This document shows, piece by piece, positions 143-31,864 of a stretch of 46,547 bases of DNA. The position numbers and the translations under genes were made by a program. The DNA lies in assembly GCA_017553445.1 (NCBI GenBank), contig JAFZMD010000058.1, forward strand, positions 1 through 46,547, given 5' to 3'. Every line of letters starts with the position of its first letter. Positions within the stretch are counted from its first letter, which is position 1. The notes below the pieces were generated by a model. It was not told where the DNA came from, searched no databases, and was given only the letters and a program-made list of their open reading frames with translations. The DNA is from Methanobrevibacter sp. GTDB lineage: Archaea > Methanobacteriota > Methanobacteria > Methanobacteriales > Methanobacteriaceae.

Positions 143-184
143 GAAAAAAAAGAAAAAATTGTTAATTAATTTTTAACAATTTTT
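143..184 (-). terminator. Hairpin terminator after the HD-RyR gene
   Basis: A perfect 12-bp inverted repeat (154-165 against 173-184) encloses the stop codon of the HD-RyR gene. On the minus strand it is followed by a run made almost entirely of T. The position fits the end of the six-gene operon that starts at 8549. Function is inferred from structure only. Confidence 0.55.
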
Positions 185-2406
185 AAATCAACATTTTTAC
201 ATAACTCAGGTAGAGTTTTGAATGTTAGCCTATTAGCTTCCTTGTTTTCATAATCCAATGCATCCCAGTTTACAAGATTTGGATTTGTTTTTGAAATATC
301 ATCTTTTACAGAACCATAAGTCCAACCTAAGTTAACTTTAAGTTTGTACCATGCTTCATGCTCCCTTTCAGCAAAGTAATCTATTGAGTCCGGATCAAAT
401 CCTTCAACTGCTTCTCCAGGAGAATCAATGTCAACAATGGAATATCCTCTTTGAGATAGGATTCTAATCAAGTAATCTGCCTGTTTGTAATTTGAATATT
501 TGATGTAATCAGGCAAATCTTCAAATGAAGTATTCTTATCATGTAAATTATGTATTTCAAAAGTTAAAAGTCTGATTTTACTTCTGACAACTTTCAAACC
601 TATTGACTGCATTAAATATGGGATTTCTCTAATCGGTTCACGGTCAAATTCCTTGATTTCTTCAGTTAATTCATCCCATGAAACCAGATATGGAGTAACG
701 AGGTTTTCAACATCTTTTTCTTCACCATATACCCAGCCAGTGCCGATTTTTTCTTCGCACCATTCATCATGTTCGAAAATTGCCAAGTCTTCAACTTCTT
801 CTGATGAAAACTCTGTGATTGCTTGTCTTTCATCATATTCATTTGCAAGCTCACATCCAATCATATCCAATTTAACTGGAATTGACCTTGCCTGTCTGAT
901 ATTGGCTATTTTAAGTTGAGGAGTTAGTTCATCAAAGGATTTTCTTTCATCGTATTTCTTTTGGAAGTCCTCATCGATTTCTTCACCGTTGTTAATTTTT
1001 TCCTGATATTGCTTTTCAATAAGTTCATTGTAGTGGTTGTGAATTAGAATAGCCAGGTTTTCGACATTTCTTAAAAGGATATCCGGAGCCTGAGTATCAT
1101 CAGACATTCTTTCGTTCAAAGTGAAGTATTGCTTTACGTCAGTAATGATTCTTAAACCGAATCTGAATGCACTTCTTATGGATAGGACGTTATTGAGCAA
1201 TTTTTCCTTATCTTCAGAAAAGCCTAAACCCATAGATCCGCTTTTAACAATATAATGTACATCAAGGGAATCGTCATCGATTTTTAAGAGCAATTCGTTG
1301 ACACGGCCTTTCTGCTTATCCTTTATTCCGAATGGCTGTCTGTTCCATTCCTGAAGCTCGTCACATAAAATCAAAAGAAATGCCAAAGGTGATTGGGACG
1401 GATGAAGATCCTTTAAACTGAATTGCTTTTGCAATACATTTCTGTAATAGTTATGTAATAAAATAGCTGATGCACTATCTACAATCGGATAGAAGAAAAA
1501 GTCATGATTTTTAGAATATTTCTGTATCAGATAACCATAAGAATTTAAAACAAGAATACATGAGAAGAATCCATGGTCAATGAATCCCATTTCACCCATA
1601 TCAATTACAAAGTGATCAAGATGCTTTGCAACTGCATTTACATCCACATTTTCAAAATCAGTGGAAATCTTATGGGCTATGATGTCTGTTGGCTTAAATA
1701 GATTTAAGAACTTGGATTCAGGATAGGTTACAGTGAATTCATCTGCAAAATTAGGATCCATCTTTACAATAGTGTTGAATTCATTAAAGTCTTTAAAATC
1801 AATTGCAGTATCGGCACCATAAGTGGAAGAAATTGATTTTACACCATCATTTATGAATTTTTTAAGCTGTTTTCCAATAATTTCAACGGGATATCCGATA
1901 TCGTGGAATAATGCTGCTACACCCCAACGGTATAAAAATTCCTCATCGGAAAAATCCCCATTTTTTAATCTGTAATATTTTTCATAAGGACTTTTAAGAA
2001 CATAACCTTTAAAGTATTCTCGGTATTTATTGTTCTGTGCATAAATTGCAATACCTAAAAGAAAAACATTTACGGAATGAATGAAATGATCTCTTTGTTT
2101 TTCAATTAAATCGCCAGTGCTTTCTTCATATTTTTTCATTGTTTTAACCAAATCAAGAAGGGTGTTTGGTTCTTTAACAATGCTTACTACTTTTCCATCG
2201 TCAGATTTATCTTCAGAAGTAATTTGATAAATCATGAAAAAGGTCCTATAAATTTCATATGCATTATAGGAATTTTCATTATCTAAAAATACGTCAATTC
2301 CTGCCTTTAATAAATCCTTGTAGTAATGACCGTTCTTATAGTCATCATACAATACTAAGTTATCGAAAAATTTATCGATATAATCCCTTAAATTGTTTTC
2401 ATTCAT
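166..2406 (-). CDS. HD-domain protein with two C-terminal RyR domains
   Basis: A 746-residue soluble protein with no signal peptide or membrane segment. The N-terminal half carries an HD-type metal-dependent phosphohydrolase signature: an early His pair (DHFIHSVNVF), ALFHDIGYP near residue 167, and later His residues (HGFF, LLHNYYR). The C-terminal quarter holds two RyR repeats, each with the H(D/E)-x-W ... GW-x-YG ... D ... P-x-L-V-x-W pattern, starting near residues 547 and 678. HD proteins hydrolyse nucleotides or phosphoesters. RyR domains are named from ryanodine receptors and in prokaryotes are poorly understood; a ligand-sensing role is inference. The gene is last in a six-gene operon with a kinase and a phosphatase, 25 bases after the previous gene. 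AAGGTG precedes the ATG. Domain calls are firm; substrate is unknown. Confidence 0.8.
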   Translation of the reverse strand: MNENNLRDYIDKFFDNLVLYDDYKNGHYYKDLLKAGIDVFLDNENSYNAYEIYRTFFMIYQITSEDKSDDGKVVSIVKEPNTLLDLVKTMKKYEESTGDLIEKQRDHFIHSVNVFLLGIAIYAQNNKYREYFKGYVLKSPYEKYYRLKNGDFSDEEFLYRWGVAALFHDIGYPVEIIGKQLKKFINDGVKSISSTYGADTAIDFKDFNEFNTIVKMDPNFADEFTVTYPESKFLNLFKPTDIIAHKISTDFENVDVNAVAKHLDHFVIDMGEMGFIDHGFFSCILVLNSYGYLIQKYSKNHDFFFYPIVDSASAILLHNYYRNVLQKQFSLKDLHPSQSPLAFLLILCDELQEWNRQPFGIKDKQKGRVNELLLKIDDDSLDVHYIVKSGSMGLGFSEDKEKLLNNVLSIRSAFRFGLRIITDVKQYFTLNERMSDDTQAPDILLRNVENLAILIHNHYNELIEKQYQEKINNGEEIDEDFQKKYDERKSFDELTPQLKIANIRQARSIPVKLDMIGCELANEYDERQAITEFSSEEVEDLAIFEHDEWCEEKIGTGWVYGEEKDVENLVTPYLVSWDELTEEIKEFDREPIREIPYLMQSIGLKVVRSKIRLLTFEIHNLHDKNTSFEDLPDYIKYSNYKQADYLIRILSQRGYSIVDIDSPGEAVEGFDPDSIDYFAEREHEAWYKLKVNLGWTYGSVKDDISKTNPNLVNWDALDYENKEANRLTFKTLPELCKNVDLKIVKN

Positions 2407-2431
2407 TTTTACACCTTACTAATTTATATCT

Positions 2432-3229
2432 TCATGAAATTAAATAAGTTTTATTATAAAAAATTTTTAAATCTTTTGCATAGTCAAAAACTTCATCTAA
2501 ACTCTGCATTTTTGAATATAGTTTTTCAATTTGTTTTTCGCTGAATTTGGAAGTATCTATATCATACATCATAGAATCCAAATCAACATATTCGTCCCAA
2601 TAATAAATAATTGGTTTTTTAAATACCTTATCATATGCTATCAGATATAACTCTAAAGAAATATCACCATATTCCTGCATTTTATTTAAATCCTTTTCAA
2701 TCTTTTCGTTAATCCAACTTGCCAAATGATCTACCATGAAAAATGGAATGGCATCACATTTACAGACTTCAGCGATTCTTTCAATTAGCTTTGAGTCAGA
2801 ATGTTTGAAATATTCATCAAAAAGCCAGAATAATTTTCTCACTTCATCGCTCATCAAATCCAAAAGATCATTTGACATGTCCAATGCTTCAACATCTTCA
2901 TCAAATGGGCCATTATACAATAAATCACAATAAAAAAGCTTGATGAATGGAGTTAATCCATTATTCTGACTGGAAAGATTGTAAAATAATTTATAAATAC
3001 TAATCCATTCATCACTGGAAAATTCACATTCCTCAAATAGTTTAAAATCATAATTGGAGAATTCAAAATCCAATTTGAAATTGGATTTGTCAAAAAAATT
3101 ATCAAATTTCTCAAATATCAATTTAGAATAATCTTTGGATGAATCAAAATCATTTATAAACTCATCAAAAATATAAAATAATGAGATAAATAACTCATTT
3201 TTTAATTCAAAGTACTTTTCTAAATCCAT
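2432..3229 (-). CDS. Acidic helical protein of unknown function
   Basis: 265 residues, very rich in Asp, Glu, Phe and Tyr, predicted largely helical and soluble. I do not recognise a family. It has no Cys clusters, nucleotide-binding loop or signal peptide. A GTGGTAAT ribosome site precedes the ATG. The start lies only 7 bases after the phosphatase stop codon, and the HD-RyR gene follows after 25 bases, so it is almost certainly cotranscribed with the kinase/phosphatase cassette. It could be an adaptor or a substrate of the kinase, but that rests on position only. Confidence 0.7.
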   Translation of the reverse strand: MDLEKYFELKNELFISLFYIFDEFINDFDSSKDYSKLIFEKFDNFFDKSNFKLDFEFSNYDFKLFEECEFSSDEWISIYKLFYNLSSQNNGLTPFIKLFYCDLLYNGPFDEDVEALDMSNDLLDLMSDEVRKLFWLFDEYFKHSDSKLIERIAEVCKCDAIPFFMVDHLASWINEKIEKDLNKMQEYGDISLELYLIAYDKVFKKPIIYYWDEYVDLDSMMYDIDTSKFSEKQIEKLYSKMQSLDEVFDYAKDLKIFYNKTYLIS

Positions 3230-3236
3230 ATTACCA

Positions 3237-3998
3237 CTAAATTAAAAATTTTAATTGCTTTTGCAAATCCTTCATTGAATTTAATTCTTTTGATAAATCA
3301 ATGTCCAAATATGTTTTTACTTTCGTATAAAAACTGGAAGCTAAAATCATTTGATTTCCATATAGCTTATATGATTCTACAACATTATGACCAATAACCA
3401 TATACTTTGCGTCAATTACTTCCAGGAAGTTATCAACATCGCTTTTTGTGTAATGGGTAAAATTATTATACCTATTCCATAAAAAATCATACAAAATGGG
3501 ACCTGAATAATCACTTTCAAAGATTTTATTAAAGGCTTCAATAGATTTAACCTTAAATGACGGTCCAGAATGAGATAAAAATAGTCCATTTGCAGTTTTT
3601 ACAAAATAAGGCATTGTCTTGAAGAATTTGATGTAATTAGTCAATGAAGGTTCAATGAATCCTTTCCTATAAGAAACCAGGTTTTCGAATTTTCTTATCA
3701 AATCTTCGCCATTTTTGTAAATCTCAGAGTTTACTATGTGAGCCCATTCATGATTTCCCAAAAGAGTATGAAAATTAGGACATTCGGATTTTTCAATAGC
3801 GTCATCCAAAATTTCAATAGACTTATCGTCATCACCTACAGCATGAATTAAATCCCCTAAAAATACAATATGAAAATCTGAATCATTTTCATCCCACAGG
3901 TTTACATATCTATTGTAATCCTCAAGATTTCCATGAATATCACTTACAACAATCAAACGACCATAGTCCGGCAATTCGATTAGTTTATCATTAAACAT
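3237..3998 (-). CDS. PPP-family metallophosphatase (Ser/Thr phosphatase-like)
   Basis: 253 residues with the full calcineurin-type metal-site series in order: SDIHGN (about 18-22), FLGDL (about 46), LLGNHEW (about 100), LSHSGP (about 142) and VIGHN (about 203). This layout matches the PPP/PrpE/ApaH group, which removes phosphate from Ser/Thr or cleaves Np4N nucleotides. Beside a Ser/Thr kinase and an FHA protein, a protein-phosphatase role is the most economical reading. A strong GGAGGG site overlaps the end of the 43-residue ORF just upstream, so the two are probably translationally coupled. Cytoplasmic. Confidence 0.85.
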   Translation of the reverse strand: MFNDKLIELPDYGRLIVVSDIHGNLEDYNRYVNLWDENDSDFHIVFLGDLIHAVGDDDKSIEILDDAIEKSECPNFHTLLGNHEWAHIVNSEIYKNGEDLIRKFENLVSYRKGFIEPSLTNYIKFFKTMPYFVKTANGLFLSHSGPSFKVKSIEAFNKIFESDYSGPILYDFLWNRYNNFTHYTKSDVDNFLEVIDAKYMVIGHNVVESYKLYGNQMILASSFYTKVKTYLDIDLSKELNSMKDLQKQLKFLI

Positions 3999-4002
3999 AT
4001 TA

Positions 4003-4134
4003 TCAACCCTCCATCATTTTATTTAATACTTCAATAACCTTTTTTAAATCATACATGGAGTTAAAATCTAAAAACTCCTCTGATTCAATGTTATTCAGTA
4101 TTATTGTAGGCCTTTTAATATCTTTTTTAGTCAT
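4003..4134 (-). CDS. Small protein (43 aa) between kinase and phosphatase genes
   Basis: A short ORF read on the minus strand. The product begins MTKKDIKRPTII and ends LNKMMEG, is charged and has no membrane segment. A GTGGGAT ribosome-site-like stretch precedes the ATG. The stop lies 4 bases before the phosphatase ATG, and its last codons contain the phosphatase ribosome site. It fills the otherwise odd gap in a compact operon, 62 bases after the kinase stop. Function unknown. A leader peptide or a small regulator of the kinase or phosphatase is possible. Moderate confidence because of length. Confidence 0.5.
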   Translation of the reverse strand: MTKKDIKRPTIILNNIESEEFLDFNSMYDLKKVIEVLNKMMEG

Positions 4135-4196
4135 ATCAATCCCACATAGTATATAGTCTATTTGAAATAGAATATAAATCAACTAAAGTTTTTTCT

Positions 4197-7100
4197 TTAA
4201 TCAAAGCTCGAATTCCTCTCATCAAGTTCATATAATTCTTTTACTATAATGAATAATAAATCATAATCCGAATCGTTAATGGCTCCAAGAGCTTTTTTTA
4301 TTAATTCATCAGGATAACTGCTGTAAATTCCTTCATAAATCAGATTGAAAAAGCTGTTTTTAATCACTTCATCCCTGTTTAAAGTCACGTATTCTTCAAT
4401 CAGTTGGCTGTGAACATCATGCAAAACATCAATCTCCCCATTTTCAATCGCCAAATCAAGTTTATCCTCCAAATTGTCAACATCAAATAAATCATCTTTT
4501 TTGGCAATGCCTATTTTATTCATGACATTTTCCAAAAGACTGGAAAAGTTAATATCATCCAATGATCTGCATGAAGCGTCATTTATATAATTTAAATATA
4601 ACAAGGCCTGATTAAGTGCTCTTTTATCTTTTTGTGCTATTTCAAGCATTCTTTCAAGATATTCCAAAATATCATTATCCTCAAAAGCCTCTTTTTGCTT
4701 TAAATAATTTATTCGCTTTAATACTTCAATATACTGCCTGAATAATTTTTTATAGGTTATTTCACCGAATTCCAATCTGAAATTATTTTCAAAAAATGGA
4801 ATTGACATTTCTCCACCAATTATCTTATCCGGCGATTTTTCATCAAGATTTAAAATGTCTGTGCCTTTATAGACTTTGATTGAATAATCATCATCATTTA
4901 GTTTTACTTTAAACTCACCATCAATGTTTAACGGCATTTTCAGGGATTCATTTTCGTTTGAAAATTCTATATCGAATCCTAAAAATGAGAATTTCCTATC
5001 CGATGCAAATACCTTTCCCGAAACAAGGTCATTTTCCTTATTTATTATTACTGAAAATTCATTTACAGTATTTTCAACTGGAGATTTGTCCAAACTTCCG
5101 GCATAAATAGCTGCACCCTTTGCAACAACCGTCAATGGATCAATAGCATATTCCAGAGGAATATCGAATTCTTCCCGAATCAAATCCTTAACAACTGGAC
5201 TTAAACAAGACCCACCAACCAAAATGATTTTATCAACGTCACCGTCTGAAAAATCGTTTTCATCCAATAACTTGTGGCATAAAGCAAATGTGGTTTTAAT
5301 TGATGGAGTTATGATTTCCTTTAACTCTTCATTGTTTAAAGTACATGCAAAATCATAGCCATCAAAAAGATTGCTGATGAATATATCTGATTTTAGTGAA
5401 AGTGACAAATCTTTTTTGGATTTTTCAGCAAGCAGCTTAAGTTTAGAAAATATTTTAGAATATTTAGGATTATTCAGATTAAAATCATCCAGGTTTAAAT
5501 CATTGATAATTTTTGGAACAAATGTGCTTTCCACAATTTTCCAGTCCAACGTATTTCCACCCAGATTATCCAAGCCCACTGTTGCAAGCTTTTCAATTTC
5601 TTCCCCGTTATCTTCAATAAGGGACACATTGAATGTGCCTCCTCCCAAATCATAAATCATCCATATTCCATTATCCTTATGGGAAGCCTTCAAATCATAG
5701 GCTAAAGCTACGGCTATGGGCTCCAAAATAAGATTATGTGACTTGAAACCTGCAAGTTCTGCAGCATCATTTATCGCCTTTGTTTTCATAGGATTTGAAT
5801 TGGCAGGACAGCAGATAACAACATCCTCAATGTTAACTCCATACTGATTAAAAACAGATGCCCGCAAATCTTTTAAGACTTCAGCAGACAATTCTTCTGG
5901 AAACAGCACTTTTGAAGATTTTTCAAATTTAAATGGTATTGGAAAACCCATATTGCCTTTAAATTCAGATACGGCATTTTTTGAATTGTTAAGTATTGCA
6001 TTTCTGGCGCTTTCACCTACCTGTAGATTATTGTCATCGTCGATTAAAACGGCAGATGGGGTAAAATCCTGACCTGTTCTATAATTTTTAATAATTATCG
6101 GTTTGCCGTCATTATAATAGGATATGACGGAGTCGGTTGTTCCCAAATCAATTGCATAATCCACAGCATTCTTTTTAACACGATTAATAGTTTTGAAATG
6201 CAATTTCATGTTTTGTTTCCATAATGACAATTTATAGCCATATTTTGATTTCAATCCCGAATCGCAAACAACTGCAAACTCAATCAGGTTGCTTGCATCA
6301 ACGAGATTGTTCAAGTTAACTAAACGAATTGATTCATTGACTATTTCTTCAAGAGAGAATGTTTTTAATGTATTGATAATATTAGCGTAAGTATCATGAA
6401 CTTTCACGTTTGAATCCATCAGCTCTTCAAGAGAAATGACCGCCTTTATCAAATTACCGTATTTTGCCAGGTCAATGAAGATTTTCCACAAATCAATATA
6501 ATATCCATAATTGTTCACTATATCCGGATTATATGCAATGGCTTCCTTTAACATGTTGGAAGATAATTTATAGTTTTCACCGCGCAGATTTATGCTGAAG
6601 GCCTTTGAAATCAGTTTAACATCAGGACGCCTGGATTTCCACATACGTAAAGTTTCACCGTAACACTGCCTGACATCATAATCTTCAAGGACTTCCTTTT
6701 CCAATATCTCAATAGCTTCATTCAGTTTATTTTCACATTTAGCAAGTTCAAATGCCTCTTTAAGATTATCATTTATAATATATTGGGAGTATTCATCAAC
6801 ATAATCGTTTTTAACAGGAGCTATCTCATCCATTGAAAATTCAGCCATTACCAATTCAACATCCGCTAAAAGTTCCGATGCGTCATGATATCTGTTTTCA
6901 GGATTTAAGTCTAAAGATTTCAGGACAATTTCATCCAATTTTTTGGGAATTTTATCATTATATTCGCTTGGAGCTTTTAAAGTAGTATTCCACGGTTTTC
7001 CGCCAAGAATTTCTTCCAGGCTAAACTCATCAATGTCATAAGGATAATTATTCGTCAGCAATTGATAAAAAATAACGCCTATGGCATAAATATCGGTTTG

Positions 7101-7721
7101 GGTTGAAACTACTTTTTTAAAACATTCCGGAGCCATATATGGCCTTGTTCCAGCCACGTCAATATCTGAAATATCAGTGGTTACTTCCTTTGCAAAACCA
7201 AAGTCGGAAATTTTAATTACAATGTCCCCACAGGCATTATAGCTAAGCAAAATATTATTTAACTTCAAATCCCTGTGAATTATAACTGGATTTGAGGAGT
7301 GCAGGACATTTAAACCATGAAGAATCTGCTTCATCAAATTCAAACATCGATTGATTGACATTAAAATATTTGAATTAATAAAAGAATTCAGATATTGCTG
7401 CAAATCTCCTCCGGGAACATATTCCATTACAAAATAAGCTTTATTCTCATTTGAATCCCTGGAAATTATTCCAGCATCATAAATACTGATGATATTTTCA
7501 TGCCTCAGTTGAGTTGCAAGCATGACTTCATGAAAAACTTGCCTGTTATTTGAATAATCTTGCAATGGCTGCTTGATTATCTTCATTGCACGCAGATCAT
7601 CTAAAAAAACATGTTTAACCAGATAAACTTCGGCAAAAGATCCTTCACCCAAGAATTTTTTTACTTCATATTGGCCATTGAAAAATTCTTCAACCATCTG
7701 TTTAGCTTTATTGAAGTCCAA
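4197..7721 (-). CDS. Ser/Thr protein kinase fused to Hsp70 (DnaK-like) ATPase
   Basis: 1174 residues. Residues about 18-290 form a complete Hanks-type kinase: glycine loop GEGSFAEV, Lys in AMKII, HRDLKLNN near 146, DFG near 174 and APE near 197, so it should be active. A helical, TPR-like linker of about 200 residues follows. From about 520 there is an Hsp70 nucleotide-binding domain with phosphate-1 IDLGTTDS, phosphate-2 YDLGGGTF near 690 and adenosine motif ILVGGS near 834, then a shortened beta region and a helical tail to 1174. The start codon is TTG, supported by a GGTGAG site six bases upstream; no better in-frame ATG is near. It lies 30 bases after the FHA gene. Kinase-Hsp70 in one chain is unusual; it may couple detection of misfolded protein to phosphorylation of the FHA partner (inference). 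The domain assignments are certain, the role is not. Confidence 0.92.
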   Translation of the reverse strand: MDFNKAKQMVEEFFNGQYEVKKFLGEGSFAEVYLVKHVFLDDLRAMKIIKQPLQDYSNNRQVFHEVMLATQLRHENIISIYDAGIISRDSNENKAYFVMEYVPGGDLQQYLNSFINSNILMSINRCLNLMKQILHGLNVLHSSNPVIIHRDLKLNNILLSYNACGDIVIKISDFGFAKEVTTDISDIDVAGTRPYMAPECFKKVVSTQTDIYAIGVIFYQLLTNNYPYDIDEFSLEEILGGKPWNTTLKAPSEYNDKIPKKLDEIVLKSLDLNPENRYHDASELLADVELVMAEFSMDEIAPVKNDYVDEYSQYIINDNLKEAFELAKCENKLNEAIEILEKEVLEDYDVRQCYGETLRMWKSRRPDVKLISKAFSINLRGENYKLSSNMLKEAIAYNPDIVNNYGYYIDLWKIFIDLAKYGNLIKAVISLEELMDSNVKVHDTYANIINTLKTFSLEEIVNESIRLVNLNNLVDASNLIEFAVVCDSGLKSKYGYKLSLWKQNMKLHFKTINRVKKNAVDYAIDLGTTDSVISYYNDGKPIIIKNYRTGQDFTPSAVLIDDDNNLQVGESARNAILNNSKNAVSEFKGNMGFPIPFKFEKSSKVLFPEELSAEVLKDLRASVFNQYGVNIEDVVICCPANSNPMKTKAINDAAELAGFKSHNLILEPIAVALAYDLKASHKDNGIWMIYDLGGGTFNVSLIEDNGEEIEKLATVGLDNLGGNTLDWKIVESTFVPKIINDLNLDDFNLNNPKYSKIFSKLKLLAEKSKKDLSLSLKSDIFISNLFDGYDFACTLNNEELKEIITPSIKTTFALCHKLLDENDFSDGDVDKIILVGGSCLSPVVKDLIREEFDIPLEYAIDPLTVVAKGAAIYAGSLDKSPVENTVNEFSVIINKENDLVSGKVFASDRKFSFLGFDIEFSNENESLKMPLNIDGEFKVKLNDDDYSIKVYKGTDILNLDEKSPDKIIGGEMSIPFFENNFRLEFGEITYKKLFRQYIEVLKRINYLKQKEAFEDNDILEYLERMLEIAQKDKRALNQALLYLNYINDASCRSLDDINFSSLLENVMNKIGIAKKDDLFDVDNLEDKLDLAIENGEIDVLHDVHSQLIEEYVTLNRDEVIKNSFFNLIYEGIYSSYPDELIKKALGAINDSDYDLLFIIVKELYELDERNSSFD

Positions 7722-7751
7722 TTAACTCACCAAGTTAAAAAGAGCATCTGC

Positions 7752-8549
7752 TTAAAATGAACAATAAATTACCGCTCCCCTAGCACCTTTGGATAATTTT
7801 AAAAATGAATTGTTTTTCAATTTGGTAGCTACCCCATTTGGAATTTTCCTACCTGAAATGAATGTTCCGTTTGTACTTGATTCATCTAAAATATGCCAGT
7901 GGTCATCCTTATAAAATAGCTTTAAATGAGGTTTTGAAACACTGGAAACGGTTGTATATTCATTATCCAATAGAATACTGAAAGATGCCAAATCACTTTG
8001 TTCAAAGTTATCCTTTCTTCCAATCAAAACTGTTTCATTTTTATGAACTTTAAATGATTTTCCTTTATCCACACCGCTGAATATTGTCAAAACACAATGT
8101 TCATCATCCTGGAATTTTTTATTGACGTTATATAACTCAAAAAAGGACAAAAGTCCTTCTGATAAAAAATTAATATCCAAAAACAAATCTTCAAATGCGT
8201 CCCCTTTCAGCACATAACACTTGACTTCCCTAAGACCGACTTTATTAGGTACCTCTTTTTTAACGAGGACTTCTTCTATTAAACCAGCTTGCATCAATTG
8301 TTTTAAATGCTGGCCCAACATCTGTGGAGTAATGTTAATATTGTAATTATTTAAAAGATAACTGTTTATTTCACGAGAATATAAAGGATCTTTTTTAAGA
8401 TTATTGTCTTCATCGGCATATGTCGTTTGAAAATCACGTAAAATTTCTAAAATGGAAAATCTGGCCGGATTATTTACTGCAGCCAATTTAACGGATATTA
8501 AATCCAAATCATTTAAATCGACAACTTCTGTTTCGATACTATCACCCAT
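7752..8549 (-). CDS. Winged-helix DNA-binding protein with C-terminal FHA domain
   Basis: 265 residues. The N-terminal part (about 15-110) resembles an ArsR-like winged helix: a helix with PARFSILEIL, then a recognition region with TPQMLGQHLKQL and a basic wing. The C-terminal part (about 155-265) is an FHA domain with LIGRK near 175, SKPHL, and STNGTFISG near 225, the residues that contact phosphothreonine. It is therefore probably a transcription factor controlled by phosphothreonine binding. First gene of the operon, directly before the kinase-Hsp70. A palindrome beside its own TATA box (8591-8606) is a candidate autoregulatory operator. ATG preceded by GGGGTAT. Confidence 0.88.
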   Translation of the reverse strand: MGDSIETEVVDLNDLDLISVKLAAVNNPARFSILEILRDFQTTYADEDNNLKKDPLYSREINSYLLNNYNINITPQMLGQHLKQLMQAGLIEEVLVKKEVPNKVGLREVKCYVLKGDAFEDLFLDINFLSEGLLSFFELYNVNKKFQDDEHCVLTIFSGVDKGKSFKVHKNETVLIGRKDNFEQSDLASFSILLDNEYTTVSSVSKPHLKLFYKDDHWHILDESSTNGTFISGRKIPNGVATKLKNNSFLKLSKGARGAVIYCSF

Positions 8550-8582
8550 ATAATATACCCCACAATATTTTTAAGAACTTAT

Positions 8583-8606
8583 TTATAAATTATCTAAAAA
8601 TAGATA
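8583..8606 (-). promoter_or_regulatory. Promoter and palindrome of the FHA/kinase operon
   Basis: On the minus strand a TATA-like box (8583-8592) lies about 35 bases before the FHA-gene start. Immediately upstream is a perfect palindrome, TATCTA-AAAA-TAGATA (8591-8606). Placed over the TFB/TBP site, it would suit a repressor such as the winged-helix/FHA protein itself. The motif is visible; the function is inferred. Confidence 0.45.
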
Positions 8607-8629
8607 TTTAATAATTACTAATTAATCAC

Positions 8630-9256
8630 CTAGATAGAACTACTTAAAACATCATGATAGTCTTTTAAATCTTTTTCACGTAAATTTAGATTTTGCATTA
8701 ATTCACAGACCAATGCGTCAAGAATGATGAATGCAGAAATTTCAAATGCACATCCCATTAAAATTAACTCCAATGGGTCTAAATCGCCTTCCAATTCAAT
8801 GCAGTTTTGAGGAAGAGATTCTATGATTATTTTAGCATCAGAAATACCTGCAAGGTCACAGTCCTCACTACCGCAGATACTTAAAAATTTAACATTATCC
8901 AATTCTGAATCACCAATAATCTCAGTAATGGAATTGGATTTGCCTGATTTTGAAACCGTAATGATGATATCCCCATCATTAATCCAAGGTGTAATCGTTT
9001 CACCAACCACATAAACATAATAACCCAAATGCATCAGTCTCATTGCAAAGGCCTTAGCAACAAAACCAGATCTCCCCGCACCTACAAGAAAAATTGTAGT
9101 TTTTGGATTTTTTGAAGTCCTTTTATTCGAAGCAGTTTTTATAATCTCCTTGAATTCCACAATAGCTTCCTTCTGATTTTCCACAACTAATTTGCATCTA
9201 TCTGCATTTTTTAAAATTTCATCTAAAGACAAATCCATATATTTTAACTGAGACAT
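8630..9256 (-). CDS. hxlB: 6-phospho-3-hexuloisomerase
   Basis: 208 residues, a single SIS domain with the sugar-phosphate loop VGAGRSGFVAKAFAMRLMHLG and TVSKSGKSN, the usual length for the PHI family. It interconverts fructose 6-phosphate and 3-hexulose 6-phosphate. In archaea without an oxidative pentose pathway this, with hexulose-phosphate synthase, supplies ribulose 5-phosphate and handles formaldehyde. Hexulose-phosphate synthase is not in this window. The ATG has AGGTAGAT upstream and lies 16 bases after rtcB, suggesting cotranscription. Cytoplasmic enzyme. Confidence 0.9.
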   Translation of the reverse strand: MSQLKYMDLSLDEILKNADRCKLVVENQKEAIVEFKEIIKTASNKRTSKNPKTTIFLVGAGRSGFVAKAFAMRLMHLGYYVYVVGETITPWINDGDIIITVSKSGKSNSITEIIGDSELDNVKFLSICGSEDCDLAGISDAKIIIESLPQNCIELEGDLDPLELILMGCAFEISAFIILDALVCELMQNLNLREKDLKDYHDVLSSSI

Positions 9257-9271
9257 ATCAATCTACCTATT

Positions 9272-10378
9272 TTAAGCTTTAAAATTATAAACCGGTTTTG
9301 CAATATCTAAAACATCAACAGAATCATTGATATTTGATAAAATTGATTCTGCAGGTTTATATGCCATTGGAGACTCATCAAGAGTACCTTTGCTAATGGA
9401 TGTTGTGTAAATTCCATCCATTGTTTTTTCAAACTCTTCAAGAGACAAAATATTTTTAGCGTCAGAACGTTTATATAAACGGCCGGCACCATGAGGAGCA
9501 GAATAATTCCAATCAGGATTACCTTTTCCCTTACAGATTAAAGACCCTACAGCCATATTGATTGGAATGATTAAAATTTCATTCTTACTGGCTGAAACTG
9601 CACCCTTACGCAAAATCATCTTATCCAAATCTATATAATTGTGAATGGTTGTGAAACTCTTTGTATAGTCAATACCATAATTACTCAAAATGGTGTCAAT
9701 GATAGCTTTACGGTTCAGTGATGCGAAATCCTGCATTATCTGCATATCATGCAAGTAATCTTCAAATAATTTACCTTCACAGTAAATGAAATCCTTATTG
9801 GAAGCCATGTTATGGAATCTTTTAAACTCTTTTAAAGCCTGATTCTGATAATACTCACAAACGTCAGCGCCGATTCTGCGGCTTCCGGAGTGGACAACCA
9901 ATATCAAATCGCTATCAGAAGTCCTATTGACTTCAATGAAATGATTTCCACCACCTAAAGTACCTAAATAAAAGTTACCTTCACTTCCTGCTTCAAGTTC
10001 GAAATAGCATTTAAGCCTTGTTAAATCCAAATTATTCATAAACTTATGGGGCGTGACTCTTTTTTCATATCCGTGAGGGACTTTAGTGCGGACAATATCA
10101 TCAAAACGTTCAAAGTCGATTTCATCAGCATCCAAATATACAACTTCCATTCCGCAGCCAATATCAGATCCTACAAGGTTAGGAACAACCTTATCCTCGA
10201 TTGTCATTGTAGTTCCAATGGTACAGCCGGCTCCAGGATGAATGTCAGGCATCATGCGGACAGTTTGGCCTTTGGCAATAGGCTGATTTAAAAATTGGAT
10301 AACCTGAGAAATGCTTTCGCTGTCAACATCATCAGTAAAAACCTTTGCAGTTGCATATTTTCCCTTAAGTTCAAACAT
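9272..10378 (-). CDS. rtcB: RtcB-family RNA ligase, short form
   Basis: 368 residues from the ATG at 10378, chosen because GGGGGTG sits just upstream of it; the in-frame ATG 18 bases earlier would overlap that site. RtcB joins RNA 3'-phosphate or 2',3'-cyclic phosphate ends to 5'-OH ends with GTP and Mn2+. All catalytic residues are visible: Cys in GSDIGCGM, His in GGGNHFIEV, VVHSGSRR and TIHNYI, and the guanylylated His in PHGAGR. Archaeal tRNA-splicing RtcB is usually about 480 residues, so this resembles the shorter bacterial-type paralogs used in RNA repair (inference). Upstream of hxlB. Whether the organism has another RtcB cannot be seen here. Confidence 0.9.
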   Translation of the reverse strand: MFELKGKYATAKVFTDDVDSESISQVIQFLNQPIAKGQTVRMMPDIHPGAGCTIGTTMTIEDKVVPNLVGSDIGCGMEVVYLDADEIDFERFDDIVRTKVPHGYEKRVTPHKFMNNLDLTRLKCYFELEAGSEGNFYLGTLGGGNHFIEVNRTSDSDLILVVHSGSRRIGADVCEYYQNQALKEFKRFHNMASNKDFIYCEGKLFEDYLHDMQIMQDFASLNRKAIIDTILSNYGIDYTKSFTTIHNYIDLDKMILRKGAVSASKNEILIIPINMAVGSLICKGKGNPDWNYSAPHGAGRLYKRSDAKNILSLEEFEKTMDGIYTTSISKGTLDESPMAYKPAESILSNINDSVDVLDIAKPVYNFKA

Positions 10379-10447
10379 GTTTTCACCCCCATACAATAAT
10401 TATTTAAATATTTGATTTGTATAGTATTTAAATTAAATAAATAGATT

Positions 10448-10467
10448 ACTTTAATCGAGTTATATTA
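10448..10467 (+). promoter_or_regulatory. TATA promoter for leaderless dgkA
   Basis: TTATATTA at 10460-10467 lies about 27 bases before the dgkA ATG at 10490, and no ribosome site is present, so the mRNA is probably leaderless. ACTTTA immediately upstream resembles half of the TAAAG-N6-CTTTA element found at other promoters in this window. Confidence 0.45.
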
Positions 10468-10489
10468 CAAGCAAATTAAATAAAGCAAT

Positions 10490-10834
10490 ATGTCAATAAT
10501 TAAAAGTTTCAAAGATGCAATCAGTGGAATAATCAATACAATTCCAACTGAAAGAAATTTAAAAATACAAGTTATAATAATGATATTTGTTATTGCGGCA
10601 GGCTTAATTGTTAGATTATCTAGTATAGAATGGATCATTTGTATTATCATATTTGGACTTGTAATAAGTGCCGAATTATTCAACACTGCAATAGAAAAAA
10701 CATTAGATTACATTAATGAAGATTACTGTGACGAATTTAAATTCATTAAAGATGCTTCAGCCGCAGCCGTTCTGGCTTTAGCCATTGCATCAGCCATTAT
10801 CGGATTGATTATTTTTGTTCCAAAATTGATTTAA
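10490..10834 (+). CDS. dgkA: DgkA-type membrane lipid kinase
   Basis: 114 residues with three membrane helices (about 30-48, 50-70 and 92-112) and the family signature ELFNTAIEKTLD followed by KDASAAAVL. The family is the small integral-membrane diacylglycerol/undecaprenol kinases. In an archaeon the substrate is more likely an isoprenoid alcohol or archaeal lipid precursor (inference). The gene reads divergently from rtcB, and its 3' end overlaps the converging small phosphatase gene by 26 bases. Probably leaderless. Confidence 0.9.
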   Translation: MSIIKSFKDAISGIINTIPTERNLKIQVIIMIFVIAAGLIVRLSSIEWIICIIIFGLVISAELFNTAIEKTLDYINEDYCDEFKFIKDASAAAVLALAIASAIIGLIIFVPKLI

Positions 10835-11252
10835 CCTTTTTTAACACACGACAGATTTCTAAAAAACACGCATCATAAAGCTCATAATCTCCGCCAACCG
10901 GATCGTTGATGTCTATAGGATATTCACCAATGAACTGTTTAATCGTGCGAATTTCCAAATCAGGATAATATATATGAATTTTAGATATATGATTTTGCTC
11001 AAACGTTAAGATCAAATCCATGTCTTCAATATTTGAATCTTTAAAGTTCGTTGCTCTATGTTTTGACAAATCGATTCCGTGAGATTTGCAGACATCGATT
11101 GTTTTTTGAGAGGATTTCATGCCAGTCACGGCTATAACCCCAGAGGAGTAAACTTCAGCCCCATCATAGATTTTTTTAAATATTGCTTCAGCCATTGCAC
11201 TTCTTGAAGTATTTCCCGCACATACAAACATTATTTTCATTTTAGATTTCAT
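10809..11252 (-). CDS. Low-molecular-weight phosphatase, arginine-phosphatase-type P-loop
   Basis: 147 residues of the LMW protein phosphatase/arsenate reductase fold. The N-terminal P-loop is CAGNTSRS (Cys11, Arg17), and the general-acid loop DINDPVGGD lies near residue 120. The fourth loop residue after Cys is Thr, as in the B. subtilis phosphoarginine phosphatase YwlE, whereas tyrosine phosphatases normally have Ile or similar there. Arginine-phosphate specificity is therefore a fair prediction, though unproven in archaea. GGGATGAT precedes the ATG. Convergent with dgkA. A paralogous phosphatase domain, fused to HEAT-like repeats, is at 22756-24486. Confidence 0.85.
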   Translation of the reverse strand: MKSKMKIMFVCAGNTSRSAMAEAIFKKIYDGAEVYSSGVIAVTGMKSSQKTIDVCKSHGIDLSKHRATNFKDSNIEDMDLILTFEQNHISKIHIYYPDLEIRTIKQFIGEYPIDINDPVGGDYELYDACFLEICRVLKKVKSILEQK

Positions 11253-11498
11253 GATATCATCCCATTTAACTAAATATCTAATACTTTAGGTTTATTTATC
11301 GCCATCCTGCTTTTCAAAAGTTTTTCTAAATTAGTTAATCCCACCATTTAAGCACCTATAGAATTAAGTTTATTTTAAATTAATATAAATAGTTGAAAGT
11401 TTCTTCTTTATCTAATTAGATGAATCAAATTCCATTCAGTTATATTTTTATAGGATTGTTAGAAATTTTTAAATTATAATTAAATTAAATTATTTTAT

Positions 11499-14400
11499 AT
11501 GGGACATGATTTTTCAAATCAGGACTCTGAAAATTTAGACAGACTAATACATTCAGACATTAAAGAGATTACCCTGGAATCCGACATTGTTTTAGATTCC
11601 GCTGAAATCAAAATCGATGCTGATGATTTGGTTATTGATGGTAACAATCATATTATTGATGGTGATGGTAAAACTCAAATTTTCCACATTACCGGAGATA
11701 ATATTATCCTGAAAAATATTATTTTTAAAAATGCCTATTCAAAAAAGAGCGGTGCGGCAATATCTAATTTTAAAAATAACTTAACCCTAATAAACTGTAA
11801 ATTTATTAATAATGCTTCTTTTGAAGGTGATGGAGGAGCAATTTATAACTGGAAAGGTTATTTAACCGTTGATGGGTGTGAATTTATTGATAACTCTTCA
11901 AAAAATAATGGGGGAGCAATTTGTAATGGAAACTCCATGGAAATAATTAACTGTAACTTTTCAAATAACTATTCGCAAAAAAATGGATTTTCAGTTTTCA
12001 ACAATTCCGATTCATCTTTAACTTTAAAGAATTCTAAATTTGAAAGAGATGATGAGACAATTTTACAAAACAATTATTTGAATAATGAAATTTTCAATAG
12101 AGGAATTATAAACATTGAAAATTCTGAAAAAAATATTCTTAAGGAATTTATCAGATATGGATTTTTACATGTTATTTCAGATGAAAGCAGACCTTTTAGA
12201 CATCTTAAAAATTTGATTAACAAAGGCGAAAAGGAAATTAATCTGAATTTTGATATTGAATTTGCAGACGGTGATGAAGAAATCGTCATTGATGTTGATG
12301 ATTTAATTATTGACGGTAACGGCCATACAATCGATGCATTGGCCAAAATAGGTATTTTCATAGTTAACTCCAAAAATATCACATTAAAAAATATTAACTT
12401 TAAAAATGCCAATTCCAAAGAGGGAGGATTGTTGATTAATGAAAACAGTTCCATTAATTTAATCAATTGCAGCTTTGAAAATAATATTTCAGAAACTGGC
12501 GGAGCCATCAATAATAAAGGAATACTTAATATAGAAAACTGTAATTTTGAAAATAATATCTCTAAAAATGATTTTGGTGGAGCAATAAACAATAAAGGCG
12601 AAATAACATTAATTAAAACTAATTTTAATAATAACATTTCCAAAAGTGCAGGGGGTGCAATCAATAATTATAATCATGCTGATTTGGAGGAATGCAGCTT
12701 CAAATCAAACATTTCACTAAAAGGGGGAGCGATTAACAACATAGATTCTGGTTTGATGAACATTATCAAATGCAATTTTGAAAAAAATATTGCATTTAAA
12801 CAGGGCAGCATAATCTTTAACGACAAATACATGAATTTGAAAAACACTGATTTTTCGGATAATTTTTCCAATGAAAAATGCCATGCAGTTTATCACAAAG
12901 GAGATGAAGACAGCGAATTACTAATTGAAAACTGTAAATTTTCACACAATCTCACAAACAATAGTTTAATATATCTTGAAGAAGGTTTTTGCCGAATTTA
13001 TTCTTCTAAATTTGATATAAACGATGGTTATTATTGCATTTATAATCAAAATGCGAATTTAAGATTTGAAAAGTCCAAATTCATTAATTTAAATAAAAAA
13101 GCTATTTTTAACAATGGAATTTTGAATATTAGAAAGGAAGAGAAAATAGAAAATCAGATAGAATTAGGTGAAAATAGCCAAGCATTAAGTTATATCGGTG
13201 AAAAAGTTCCAAAAGACTGGAAAGGCTTTACTTATTTAGATAATTTGGTTCACTCAGGTTCTAAATATTTAAATTTGGATTCAGACATAGTAATGCATTT
13301 TTCTGAGCAAGACTTTTATGAAAGTGGAATTGAAATTGACGTTGATGACTTAGTTATTGACGGGAATTACCATACTATTGATGCCAATAATTTTTCAAGG
13401 ATATTTATAATTTCTGCTAAAAATATTGTTCTTAAAAATATCCGATTCAAAAATGGAAAATATTTTAAAAACAAATTTGACGGTGAAAATGATGGTGGAG
13501 GTGCAATATATGCTCTTCCAAAATCTTCTATTGAAATATATCACTGCATATTCCTGGAAAATAAATCCAGAGAATCTGCAGGGGCTATATTAAACAGATC
13601 AGAATATTTAAAAATTAACACCATTCGCTTTGAAAACAATTATTCTAGAAATAAGGGTGGCGCAATACTAAATGAAAATTCCTCTGTTGAAATGACAAAA
13701 TGTGATTTCATTAAAAATTTTTCTGAATGTTGCGGCGGAATTTATAATGTGAATAGTCAATTAAAGATGTGTGAAGCAATATTTAATAACAATTCCGCCA
13801 ATAAATGCGGTGCATTTTTCAACCATGACTCTTTTGTTGAATTTATTGATTGTAAATTCATGAAAAATTCCTCTAAAGATTGTGCTGGGGCCATTTTAAA
13901 CTATAAAAATTCATGCCGATTCAAAAATTGTGATTTTTTAAAAAATAATTCGATTGAATCTGGAGGAGCAATCTTTAATAAATCTGGCGAGATAACTTTA
14001 AACGATTGTAACTTTTCTAAAAATTCATCTGAAGAAGATGGAGGTGCTATTTTTAATCTTGAAGGATGTTTTAAGTTGGTTAATTGTAATTTTAATAATA
14101 ATCATGCTTTAAACCGTGGCGGATCTGTTGAAAATAACTTTAACTCGAAATTATGTCTTTCCGAATGCAATTTTTTCAAGAACCATGCAAAAGATGGGGG
14201 AGCAATATCAAACATGAAAAAATGTAATTTAACAATAAAAGATTGCGATTTTAAAAATAATGATGCCTTAGAAAATGGAGGAGTTCTTTATAACTGGTAT
14301 GGGTTTGCAGACGTCAACACTTCAAATTTTATCAATAATGAATCAGAATATGCTGGAGCAATCGATAATTATTTAGGATGGGTTAATATTAAAAAATCCA

Positions 14401-14657
14401 ATTTTAAAGATAATAATGTTAAAAAGAATGGTGGAGCTATTTTTAATGGAGGAATGTTAGAATCTCTTGATGATTGTATTTTTGAGAATAATCACTCTAT
14501 TTTAAAAGGAGGGGCCATCTATACAACCAAAAGCAGTTCAGGCAATATTTCAAAACCAAATTTGATTCCAATGGTGCGAAGGGCAATGGTGGATTGGGTG
14601 GAGCAATATTCAATAATTCATTTTCTAATGGAAATGAAAATTTTTCCCTTGATTTGA
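11499..14657 (+). CDS. Beta-helix repeat protein, no signal peptide; frame broken near 14558
   Basis: 1052 residues in this frame, built from parallel beta-helix repeats with GGAI(F/Y)N and NC-x-F turns, as in methanogen adhesin-like proteins and Chlamydia Pmp repeats. An introductory cassette (LIHSDIKEITLESDIVL ... DGNNHIIDG) appears three times, near residues 16, 226 and 586. The N terminus MGHDFSNQDSEN has no signal peptide, so the protein is probably cytoplasmic unless exported unusually. A TATA-like AATTATAAT about 25 bases before the ATG and no ribosome site suggest a leaderless mRNA. The last 30 or so residues here are out of register. The repeat resumes in the -1 frame from 14558 to 14854. 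Role unknown; possibly a scaffold. Confidence 0.85.
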   Translation: MGHDFSNQDSENLDRLIHSDIKEITLESDIVLDSAEIKIDADDLVIDGNNHIIDGDGKTQIFHITGDNIILKNIIFKNAYSKKSGAAISNFKNNLTLINCKFINNASFEGDGGAIYNWKGYLTVDGCEFIDNSSKNNGGAICNGNSMEIINCNFSNNYSQKNGFSVFNNSDSSLTLKNSKFERDDETILQNNYLNNEIFNRGIINIENSEKNILKEFIRYGFLHVISDESRPFRHLKNLINKGEKEINLNFDIEFADGDEEIVIDVDDLIIDGNGHTIDALAKIGIFIVNSKNITLKNINFKNANSKEGGLLINENSSINLINCSFENNISETGGAINNKGILNIENCNFENNISKNDFGGAINNKGEITLIKTNFNNNISKSAGGAINNYNHADLEECSFKSNISLKGGAINNIDSGLMNIIKCNFEKNIAFKQGSIIFNDKYMNLKNTDFSDNFSNEKCHAVYHKGDEDSELLIENCKFSHNLTNNSLIYLEEGFCRIYSSKFDINDGYYCIYNQNANLRFEKSKFINLNKKAIFNNGILNIRKEEKIENQIELGENSQALSYIGEKVPKDWKGFTYLDNLVHSGSKYLNLDSDIVMHFSEQDFYESGIEIDVDDLVIDGNYHTIDANNFSRIFIISAKNIVLKNIRFKNGKYFKNKFDGENDGGGAIYALPKSSIEIYHCIFLENKSRESAGAILNRSEYLKINTIRFENNYSRNKGGAILNENSSVEMTKCDFIKNFSECCGGIYNVNSQLKMCEAIFNNNSANKCGAFFNHDSFVEFIDCKFMKNSSKDCAGAILNYKNSCRFKNCDFLKNNSIESGGAIFNKSGEITLNDCNFSKNSSEEDGGAIFNLEGCFKLVNCNFNNNHALNRGGSVENNFNSKLCLSECNFFKNHAKDGGAISNMKKCNLTIKDCDFKNNDALENGGVLYNWYGFADVNTSNFINNESEYAGAIDNYLGWVNIKKSNFKDNNVKKNGGAIFNGGMLESLDDCIFENNHSILKGGAIYTTKSSSGNISKPNLIPMVRRAMVDWVEQYSIIHFLMEMKIFPLI
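14558..14564 (+). other. Possible -1 slippery heptamer A-AAT-TTG
   Basis: At the exact point where the beta-helix reading frame moves to -1, the sequence is A AAT TTG in the incoming frame, matching the X-XXY-YYZ pattern of -1 frameshift sites. I see no convincing downstream stem or pseudoknot, so a simple one-base deletion is equally possible. Such heptamers are common in AT-rich DNA. Confidence 0.3.
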
Positions 14658-31128: not shown

Positions 31129-31185
31129 TATTTTCCTCCAAAATTTTTTTATATCGCAACCATAACAATTTTTTGATTACGGAAC

Positions 31186-31262
31186 GGTACCGACAGGATT
31201 TGAACCTGCGAATTGCCTAGACTAGCAATCTAGCGTAATCGGCCTGACTATACGACGGTACC
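31186..31262 (-). tRNA. tRNA-Ser(GCT), short variable loop
   Basis: Perfect 7-bp acceptor (GGTACCG), 5-bp anticodon stem CTAGA/TCTAG with loop TTGCTAG, and a good T arm. The anticodon GCT reads AGC/AGU serine codons, and the discriminator is G, as in archaeal Ser, Asp and Asn tRNAs. The variable region is only 7 bases, whereas the two other Ser tRNAs here have the long arm that serine tRNAs normally need. Charging with Ser is therefore uncertain. Confidence 0.75.
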
Positions 31263-31321
31263 AACATTTTGAATAGGGATAAAACCATAATATGGATTAA
31301 ATCCCCATATATGGCAGAAAT

Positions 31322-31391
31322 GAGAACGGAAGGATTTGAACCCCCATCAGATGGTCTGGAGCCAACTATGCTGCCGTTACACCACGTCCTC
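31322..31391 (-). tRNA. tRNA-Trp(CCA)
   Basis: 70 bases. Acceptor GAGGACG pairs with CGTTCTC with a G-U pair; anticodon loop CTCCAGA. The anticodon stem contains one U-U mismatch (second pair). No intron. Small D arm. Confidence 0.8.
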
Positions 31392-31476
31392 ATTCAGTTA
31401 GATGTACGGGCAGAGATTTGGAAGCAATCCTCTTCTTGCAAAGAGGCATTTTCCATTAGAACTGCCCATACAAAAT

Positions 31477-31546
31477 GCTAAAGTCGGGAGTCGAACCCGA
31501 ATCCTAACCTTGGAAGGGTCATATGCTACCATTACACCACTAAAGC
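31477..31546 (-). tRNA. tRNA-Gly(TCC)
   Basis: Anticodon loop CTTCCAA; T arm TCGGG/CCCGA is perfect. The acceptor GCTTTAG against CTTTAGC has two adjacent U-U mismatches (pairs 4-69 and 5-68), which is unusual. A decayed copy of this gene lies at 31634-31702. Confidence 0.75.
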
Positions 31547-31553
31547 AACTAAT

Positions 31554-31624: not shown

Positions 31625-31633
31625 ATATACAAG

Positions 31634-31774: not shown

Positions 31775-31791
31775 ATATTCATTCATCAAAA

Positions 31792-31862: not shown

Positions 31863-31864
31863 AG

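What the first reader, a model, noticed from the sequence alone, without database searches (positions are those of the whole stretch)
166..8606. Six-gene phospho-signalling operon with kinase-Hsp70, FHA regulator, phosphatase and HD-RyR effector
Seen: tightly packed minus-strand genes with 4-62 base gaps encode a winged-helix/FHA protein, Ser/Thr kinase-Hsp70, a 43-aa protein, a PPP phosphatase, an unknown acidic protein and HD+2xRyR. Known: FHA domains read phosphothreonine, PPP enzymes reverse it, HD proteins cleave phosphoesters. Inference: a complete circuit in which the Hsp70 half senses unfolded protein or nucleotide state, the kinase marks the FHA regulator, the phosphatase resets it, and HD-RyR is an output or second-messenger enzyme. 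I know of no described archaeal system of this make-up.
Basis: partly seen in the sequence, partly recalled or inferred. Interest (0 to 1): 0.85.

Follow-up and report, generated by a model that had tools for sequence, protein, structure and literature searches.

The report
Archaeal phospho-signalling operon with HD-RyR effector
Rumen- and gut-type methanogens of the Methanobrevibacter group share a real, movable gene cluster that looks like a phosphate-based on/off switch (kinase, phosphate reader, phosphatase) wired to an RNA-repair enzyme and to proteins whose domains resemble those that bind ADP-ribose immune signals, so it is probably a stress or virus response that has not been described.

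Summary
The genes are there exactly as described: six same-strand genes with gaps of 4-62 bases and intact key catalytic or binding motifs. The set is conserved: 21 genus genomes have the kinase-Hsp70 fusion, all have the FHA gene, 20 have HD-RyR, and gene order recurs. Three corrections matter. (1) The system is larger: an RtcB RNA ligase and a SIS protein precede FHA in the same order elsewhere, and this RtcB occurs almost only in genomes with the kinase; a second HD-RyR follows across a contig break. (2) The fused Hsp70 half keeps its ATPase but has no detectable peptide-binding domain, whereas paralogues keep one, weakening 'senses unfolded protein'. (3) HD-RyR is separable cargo: FHA and kinase-Hsp70 trees agree, the HD-RyR tree does not. 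Bacterial HD-RyR genes sit next to TIR/STAND/LRR genes, one Methanobrevibacter has two TIR genes upstream, and RyR residues match a phage enzyme that cleaves cyclic ADP-ribose immune signals. The conserved 43-residue protein and the FHA tail share a Thr motif, a candidate phosphosite. Best reading: a kinase/FHA/PPP phospho-switch controlling an RNA-repair and ADP-ribose-nucleotide response; function unproven.

The parts
9272..10396 (-). RtcB-family RNA ligase (374 aa), first gene of the extended cluster
   Evidence: Pfam RtcB 5e-59. DIGCG, GGGNH, VVHSGSR and PHGAGR active-site motifs present. Occurs in 16 of 139 family genomes, 15 of which have the kinase/Hsp70 system; same order RtcB-SIS-FHA
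8630..9256 (-). SIS-domain sugar-phosphate isomerase-like protein (208 aa)
   Evidence: Pfam SIS 6.6e-14; nearest NCBIfam RuMP_HxlB 8.5e-36 but below its cut-off; 15 bases after RtcB and 80 before FHA
7752..8549 (-). Winged-helix + FHA regulator (265 aa); near-invariant Thr7 in the N-terminal tail, hydrophobic residue at +3
   Evidence: FHA 1.2e-9, weak ArsR/HxlR-type HTH. G177 R178, S202, H208, N227 G228 T229 invariant in 18 homologues
4197..7721 (-). Fused Ser/Thr kinase - middle region - Hsp70 ATPase - beta-sandwich - helical tail (1174 aa)
   Evidence: Pkinase 3.5e-51, HSP70 5e-61 ending at profile position 377 of 599. K47, E65, D151, N156, D173 invariant in 17 orthologues
6870..7670 (-). 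Kinase catalytic domain (aa 18-284)
   Evidence: catalytic residues
5085..6152 (-). Hsp70 nucleotide-binding domain (aa 524-879)
   Evidence: DLGTT, EP, DLGGGT and VGG motifs conserved in most orthologues
4212..5060 (-). C-terminal Ig/FnIII-like beta-sandwich (about aa 888-982) and helical bundle (about aa 989-1170); no peptide-binding domain detectable
   Evidence: AlphaFold2 model pLDDT 87.4; no PDB match at E<=1e-3; alignment break against paralogous Hsp70
4003..4134 (-). Conserved 43-aa protein with T-[VIL]-[VIL]-L-N motif
   Evidence: Found downstream of the kinase in all 14 loci examined; coding-type substitution pattern
3237..3998 (-). PPP-superfamily phosphatase (253 aa)
   Evidence: Metallophos 7.5e-12; profile matches PP1 at 5.9e-8; metal ligands D20, H22, D49, N82, H143, H204 invariant in 20 homologues, but GDxVDRG is replaced by GDxIH
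2432..3229 (-). Acidic protein (265 aa), optional component
   Evidence: 4 of 139 genomes, always between PPP and HD-RyR; fused to HD-RyR in G086 (1021 aa)
166..2406 (-). HD-RyR protein 1 (746 aa): HD domain plus two RyR domains
   Evidence: RyR 1.6e-28; AlphaFold2 pLDDT 86.3, nearest PDB folds human RyR3 Repeat12 including ADP, ATP and AMP-PCP complexes
1327..2088 (-). HD metal-binding region (H107, H110, H168, D169, D349)
   Evidence: Invariant in the 41-sequence HD alignment; one tandem copy (L068:5067-7334) has lost it
589..804 (-). RyR domain 1: H546, W549, D588 align with RyDEP H75, W78, D117; RyDEP H100 is Thr here
   Evidence: Alignment with the RyDEP gene itself, phage DyoEdafos gp78
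211..384 (-). RyR domain 2: H683, W686 kept; RyDEP D117 position is Asn725

Best explanation
The cluster is a movable phospho-switch module, RtcB-SIS-FHA-kinase/Hsp70-43aa-PPP-(acidic)-HD-RyR-HD-RyR. Inferred working: the Hsp70-type ATPase half, which has lost its peptide-binding domain, acts as a nucleotide- or partner-controlled regulator of the attached Ser/Thr kinase. When triggered, the kinase phosphorylates a Thr in the N-terminal tail of the winged-helix/FHA protein and the matching T-V-I-L-N motif of the 43-aa protein. The FHA domain reads these phosphothreonines in cis or trans, changing DNA binding or complex assembly, and the PPP enzyme reverses it. Outputs are RNA repair (RtcB), a sugar-phosphate enzyme (SIS) and HD-RyR proteins. 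In HD-RyR the RyR domains bind, and domain 1 might cleave, an ADP-ribose-type nucleotide, and this controls or feeds the HD phosphohydrolase. The most likely setting is a stress or virus-infection response. Shown: gene content, order, co-occurrence, conservation of catalytic and binding residues, no detectable peptide-binding domain, TIR neighbourhoods of HD-RyR elsewhere. Inferred: phosphorylation targets, ligand, regulation, purpose.
For: Order and content recur in many genomes. Co-occurrence across 139 genomes: kinase/Hsp70 with FHA 30 of 32 (p=3e-22), with HD-RyR 26 of 32 (p=3e-16), RtcB with kinase/Hsp70 15 of 16 (p=2e-10) (not corrected for phylogeny). FHA and kinase-Hsp70 trees both join G000 with G039 at 100% support. 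Catalytic and phosphothreonine-binding residues intact. Shared motif K-T-V-[IL]-[IL]-D (many FHA tails) and P-T-V-[IV]-L-N (43-aa protein). PPP profile matches PP1. RyR domain 1 has the RyDEP catalytic pair H75/D117 and the stacking W78; the phage RyR domain binds or cleaves 2'/3'cADPR (PMC13232231, preprint). 12 of 38 direct neighbours of HD-RyR elsewhere carry TIR domains and 6 carry DUF4062 (DUF4062 paired with NACHT/AAA and WD40 or TPR where read singly). Methanobrevibacter G088 has TIR, TIR, 242 aa, HD-RyR on one strand. Paralogous kinase/Hsp70/PPP operons in G056, G078 and G084 have a TIR-PMP gene at their head.
Against: No transcript, phosphorylation or ligand data. The window's own genome has no TIR_2 gene, so no local source of a TIR signal is known. 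HD-RyR occurs without the kinase in 7 genomes and its tree conflicts with that of the kinase. RyDEP H100 is not conserved in domain 1, domain 2 has Asn for the catalytic Asp, and most phage RyR homologues tested bind without cleaving. The PPP motif GDxVDRG is absent, so its substrate may not be a phosphoprotein. The HD region has no close solved relative by sequence. SIS-FHA has an 80-base gap with possible TATA-like sequence, so FHA may have its own promoter.
Confidence: 0.45

Rival explanations
1. A proteostasis (heat or unfolded-protein) regulator: the Hsp70 half binds misfolded protein, releases the kinase, and the FHA regulator induces chaperones.
For: Paralogous operons combine the same kinase and Hsp70 with a ClpB-like disaggregase (TIGR03346, 738.9 bits) and keep a peptide-binding domain. 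A DnaK paralogue with TPR proteins lies 27 kb away in the window and is conserved at 92-93% in relatives.
Against: The fused protein has no detectable peptide-binding domain. No DnaJ or GrpE was recognised in the cluster. RtcB, SIS and HD-RyR are not chaperone functions.
Confidence: 0.2
2. A Thoeris-like antiviral system in which HD-RyR is the receptor-effector for a TIR-made cyclic ADP-ribose, with the kinase/FHA/PPP part only setting its expression.
For: TIR in 12 of 38 proteins adjacent to HD-RyR elsewhere and upstream of it in Methanobrevibacter G088; RyDEP residues in domain 1.
Against: No TIR_2 gene in the window's genome; most archaeal HD-RyR neighbours that were scanned are not TIR proteins.
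Confidence: 0.2
3. An RNA-damage response: HD-RyR, kinase and FHA tune an RtcB-based repair pathway after ribonuclease attack, analogous to RtcR-controlled rtcB operons.
For: This RtcB is nearly restricted to genomes with the system (15 of 16) and its active-site motifs are intact.
Against: About half of kinase-bearing genomes lack RtcB; no CARF or RNA-end sensor seen.
Confidence: 0.15

Closest known systems
Sulfolobus archaellum regulatory network (ArnA FHA, ArnB vWA, kinases ArnC/ArnD, phosphatase PP2A)
   Same: Archaeal Ser/Thr kinases, an FHA transcriptional regulator and a PPP phosphatase form a phospho-dependent gene switch (PMC5300886, PMC10470591)
   Different: No Hsp70 fusion, 43-aa protein, RtcB or HD-RyR; ArnA works with a vWA partner, and no vWA gene is in this cluster
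Kinase + HSP70 fusion reported in Pirellula (PMC1262709)
   Same: One polypeptide with Ser/Thr kinase then Hsp70 homology
   Different: Reported as a domain architecture in a planctomycete; the passages read describe no operon, FHA partner or function
Thoeris (TIR enzyme plus cADPR-binding effector) and phage RyDEP
   Same: HD-RyR homologues neighbour TIR genes; RyR domain 1 has the RyDEP H/W/D residues (PMC13232231, preprint)
   Different: No TIR_2 gene in this genome; the RyR is fused to an HD domain in a cellular protein; activity untested
GarA/OdhI-type FHA switch of actinobacteria (from memory)
   Same: FHA protein with a conserved Thr in a short N-terminal tail, candidate kinase site
   Different: Here the FHA protein also carries a winged helix and sits with its kinase and phosphatase
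HSP70-, kinase- and phosphatase-associated NTP-dependent conflict systems (PMC7159879)
   Same: Hsp70 without its peptide-binding domain, kinases and phosphatases occur in conflict-type loci
   Different: Those are GTPase or MoxR-vWA centred; none of their core genes was recognised here

Membership tests
RyR domain family (PF02026) | Score above the curated cut-off | tested here: met
   99.2 bits against 27.4, two stretches
RyDEP-type cADPR glycosidase | Catalytic dyad H75/D117 and stacking W78 | tested here: met
   H546, D588, W549 in domain 1; domain 2 has Asn in place of Asp
RyDEP-type cADPR glycosidase | Phosphate-binding H100 | tested here: not met
   Thr571 in the window protein; His in some orthologues
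RyDEP-type cADPR glycosidase | Cleaves 2'/3'cADPR | not testable with these tools
   needs biochemistry
HD phosphohydrolase | Pfam HD score above cut-off | tested here: not met
   14.2 bits against 22
HD phosphohydrolase | H...HD...D metal residues | tested here: met
   Invariant in A9, 41 sequences; lost in a few tandem copies
Hsp70 chaperone | Nucleotide-binding domain | tested here: met
Hsp70 chaperone | Peptide-binding (SBD-beta) domain | tested here: not met
   Pfam match ends at 377/599; paralogue SBD matches DnaK (8.8e-7) but not the fused protein; model shows one Ig-like sandwich plus helices and no Hsp70 among the PDB matches listed
PPP phosphatase | Two-metal ligand set | tested here: met
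   D20, H22, D49, N82, H143, H204 invariant; PP1 is best profile match
PPP phosphatase | GDxVDRG motif | tested here: not met
   GDxIH in place of GDxVDRG
FHA phosphothreonine reader | Arg, Ser, Asn/Gly core residues | tested here: met
   R178, S202, N227 G228 invariant
RtcB ligase | Metal and GMP-binding residues | tested here: met
   Motifs align with RtcB-family structure 2epg
Sulfolobus Arn network | FHA regulator with vWA partner, kinase, PP2A | tested here: not met
   FHA, kinase and PPP present; no vWA gene in the cluster
Thoeris | TIR gene with the effector | tested here: not met
   No TIR_2 match in own genome (assembly 91% complete)

The most novel reading that the evidence does not exclude
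HD-RyR is a widespread, undescribed receptor-effector family for TIR-made ADP-ribose signals in bacteria and archaea, and Methanobrevibacter has rewired it to a kinase-Hsp70/FHA/PPP phospho-switch with RNA repair, giving an antiviral or damage-response system of a kind not previously described in archaea.
Probability: 0.25. Interest if true: 0.85.

Novelty: new variant of a known kind. Interest (0 to 1): 0.6.

Why it matters
If right, it gives a compact archaeal phospho-signalling circuit with kinase, reader, phosphatase and candidate substrate in one operon, directly testable in vitro. It would also give a cellular (not phage) role for RyR domains, linking them through HD enzymes and TIR genes to ADP-ribose signalling, in methanogens of agricultural importance.

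Tried and rejected
1) Canonical unfolded-protein sensing by the Hsp70 half: weakened by absence of a detectable peptide-binding domain. 2) A fixed six-gene circuit: rejected, since RtcB-SIS belong to it, the acidic gene is rare, and HD-RyR has its own history. 3) Known defence system: PADLOC gave only generic kinase hits (mad6, PD-T4-6 and others), a weak Csa3-type HTH hit for the FHA protein, and nothing for HD-RyR, PPP or the acidic protein. 4) Local TIR partner in this genome: none for TIR_2. 5) HD-RyR in viruses: no relative found in IMG/VR with the patterns used. 6) HD-domain identity through PDB profile search: nothing significant. 7) Contaminant contig: GC 0.326, within the 0.302-0.376 of 16 other stretches sampled from the genome, and relatives G038 and G039 have HD-RyR 1 and 2 side by side with the same genes downstream. 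8) A search for nSTAND1 in the genome gave nothing. 9) Literature searches for RyR domains with Hsp70/FHA, or for Methanobrevibacter kinases or FHA, found no description.
Full report
OBSERVATION. The six genes are in the sequence at the stated coordinates with gaps of 25, 7, 4, 62 and 30 bases. Pfam confirms the FHA, kinase, Hsp70, metallophosphatase and RyR domains. The acidic protein and the 43-aa protein match no Pfam family, and the HD domain is below its cut-off, though its H/HD/D residues are invariant in a 41-sequence alignment. The 43-aa ORF is a genuine gene: it recurs downstream of the kinase in all 14 loci examined, with conserved T, L-N and FLD residues (the 13-locus core and a third-position-biased substitution pattern).

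EXTENT. In relatives the order is RtcB-SIS-FHA-kinase/Hsp70-43aa-PPP-(acidic)-HD-RyR-HD-RyR. This RtcB is not housekeeping: only 16 of 139 family genomes have it, 15 of them with the kinase/Hsp70 system. The second HD-RyR of this genome starts contig C85 and is followed by the same genes as in G038 and G039, where HD-RyR 1 and 2 are adjacent, so C82 and C85 are very probably neighbours. The acidic gene is rare (4 genomes) but always sits between PPP and HD-RyR, and in G086 it is fused to HD-RyR.

CONSERVATION. Across 139 genomes kinase/Hsp70 co-occurs with FHA (30 of 32) and HD-RyR (26 of 32). These p-values ignore phylogeny. Trees add independent information: kinase-Hsp70 and FHA both join G000 to G039 with full support, while HD-RyR groups G000 with G038, G074 and G069, and G039 with G094. 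FHA and kinase-Hsp70 thus look like an inherited pair, and HD-RyR like exchangeable cargo; it also occurs without the kinase in 7 genomes. Some copies carry stops or are split (G022, G031, one of two in G094), as expected of a dispensable module.

KINASE-HSP70. Kinase residues K47, E65, D151, N156, D173 are invariant in 17 orthologues. The Hsp70 half matches only the nucleotide-binding part (profile 4-377 of 599). Paralogous operons carry kinase and Hsp70 as separate genes, and their 840-aa Hsp70 keeps a region that matches the DnaK peptide-binding domain (8.8e-7), with no counterpart in the fused protein. The modelled C-terminus (pLDDT 87) is an Ig/FnIII-like sandwich and a helical bundle, with no solved match at E<=1e-3.

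PHOSPHO-SWITCH. The FHA core residues are invariant. The FHA tail has a near-invariant Thr7, mostly K-T-V-[IL]-[IL]-D or x-T-E-[IVLF]-[IV]-D. The 43-aa protein has [PSAN]-T-[VIL]-[VIL]-L-N. Both place a hydrophobic residue at +3, a preference of some FHA domains (own knowledge). I infer these are the kinase's sites and the FHA's ligands; untested. The phosphatase profile is nearest to PP1 with all metal ligands kept but a changed second motif, so protein phosphatase activity is plausible, not shown.

HD-RYR. The model (pLDDT 86) matches human RyR3 Repeat12, solved with ADP, ATP and AMP-PCP. A 2026 preprint (PMC13232231) shows a phage RyR protein, RyDEP, cleaving 2'/3'cADPR, and related ones sequestering them. 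Aligning RyDEP itself (phage DyoEdafos gp78) to our domains: H75, W78, D117 are H546, W549, D588 in domain 1; domain 2 has H683, W686, N725; H100 is Thr in domain 1. HD-RyR relatives of about 575 aa with one RyR occur in Clostridia, Chloroflexi, Coriobacteriia and Thermoplasmata. Of 38 adjacent co-directional proteins 12 have TIR, 11 LRR and 6 DUF4062; several are TIR-NB-ARC-TPR, TIR-LRR, or DUF4062-NACHT/AAA-WD40 proteins. This sample may contain near-duplicate loci. In Methanobrevibacter G088 two TIR genes and a 242-aa gene precede HD-RyR. Paralogous kinase/Hsp70/PPP operons in G056, G078 and G084 start with a TIR-PMP gene; G081 has a gene of the same size in that place, not scanned. The own genome has no TIR_2 gene, so the signal source here, if any, is unknown.

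COMPARISON AND NOVELTY. The nearest archaeal logic is the Sulfolobus Arn network (PMC5300886, PMC10470591), which shares kinase, FHA and PPP but not the rest. Kinase-HSP70 fusion is known as an architecture from Pirellula (PMC1262709). No paper found describes the combination. I rate it a new variant of a known kind, with a less probable reading as a new TIR-linked response family.

LIMITS. Most relatives are metagenome bins. All function is inferred from sequence and models. The RyDEP source is a preprint. The literature library is partial.

Noticed in passing
window 17066, 27328, 30450, 39110 and others; relatives L062, L067, L069, L074, L083: Palindrome TAAAGCAnnTGCTTTA: 8 matches (<=2 mismatches) in the window against 0.44 expected; 4 of the 6 sites with <=1 mismatch in the whole genome are in this contig, and 7 of 9 in G038 are in its operon contig. 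Sites often lie 40-130 bases upstream of RtcB, FHA, a GlmS-like gene and paralogous operons. Possible operator of the FHA regulator; the window's own RtcB promoter carries only a degenerate copy.
   Followed up: partly
L080, L085, L086, L079, L084, L066, L087-L090: Paralogous operons: ClpB-like AAA+, kinase, two unknowns, full Hsp70, PPP, small protein, TPR/M78-like protein; a variant in G056, G078, G084 has a TIR-PMP gene at its head.
   Followed up: partly
window 34782-40493: DnaK paralogue with TPR and unknown genes, 92-93% identical in G038, G074 and G086, about 27 kb from the operon.
   Followed up: no
window 11499-14657: 1052-aa right-handed beta-helix/PMP-repeat protein whose first residues do not look like a signal peptide.
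   Followed up: no
window 31184-34017: Cluster of 20 tRNA genes by ARAGORN, including three tRNA-Leu(taa); Rfam adds two weak tRNAs.
   Followed up: no
L068 (G086) 2590-13646: Four HD-RyR genes in tandem, one fused to the acidic protein; one copy has lost its HD metal residues, suggesting conversion to a binding-only role.
   Followed up: no
L167 9992-14572: Coriobacteriia contig with HD-RyR about 1.8 kb from an RtcB gene 49% identical to that of the window, on the opposite strand.
   Followed up: no
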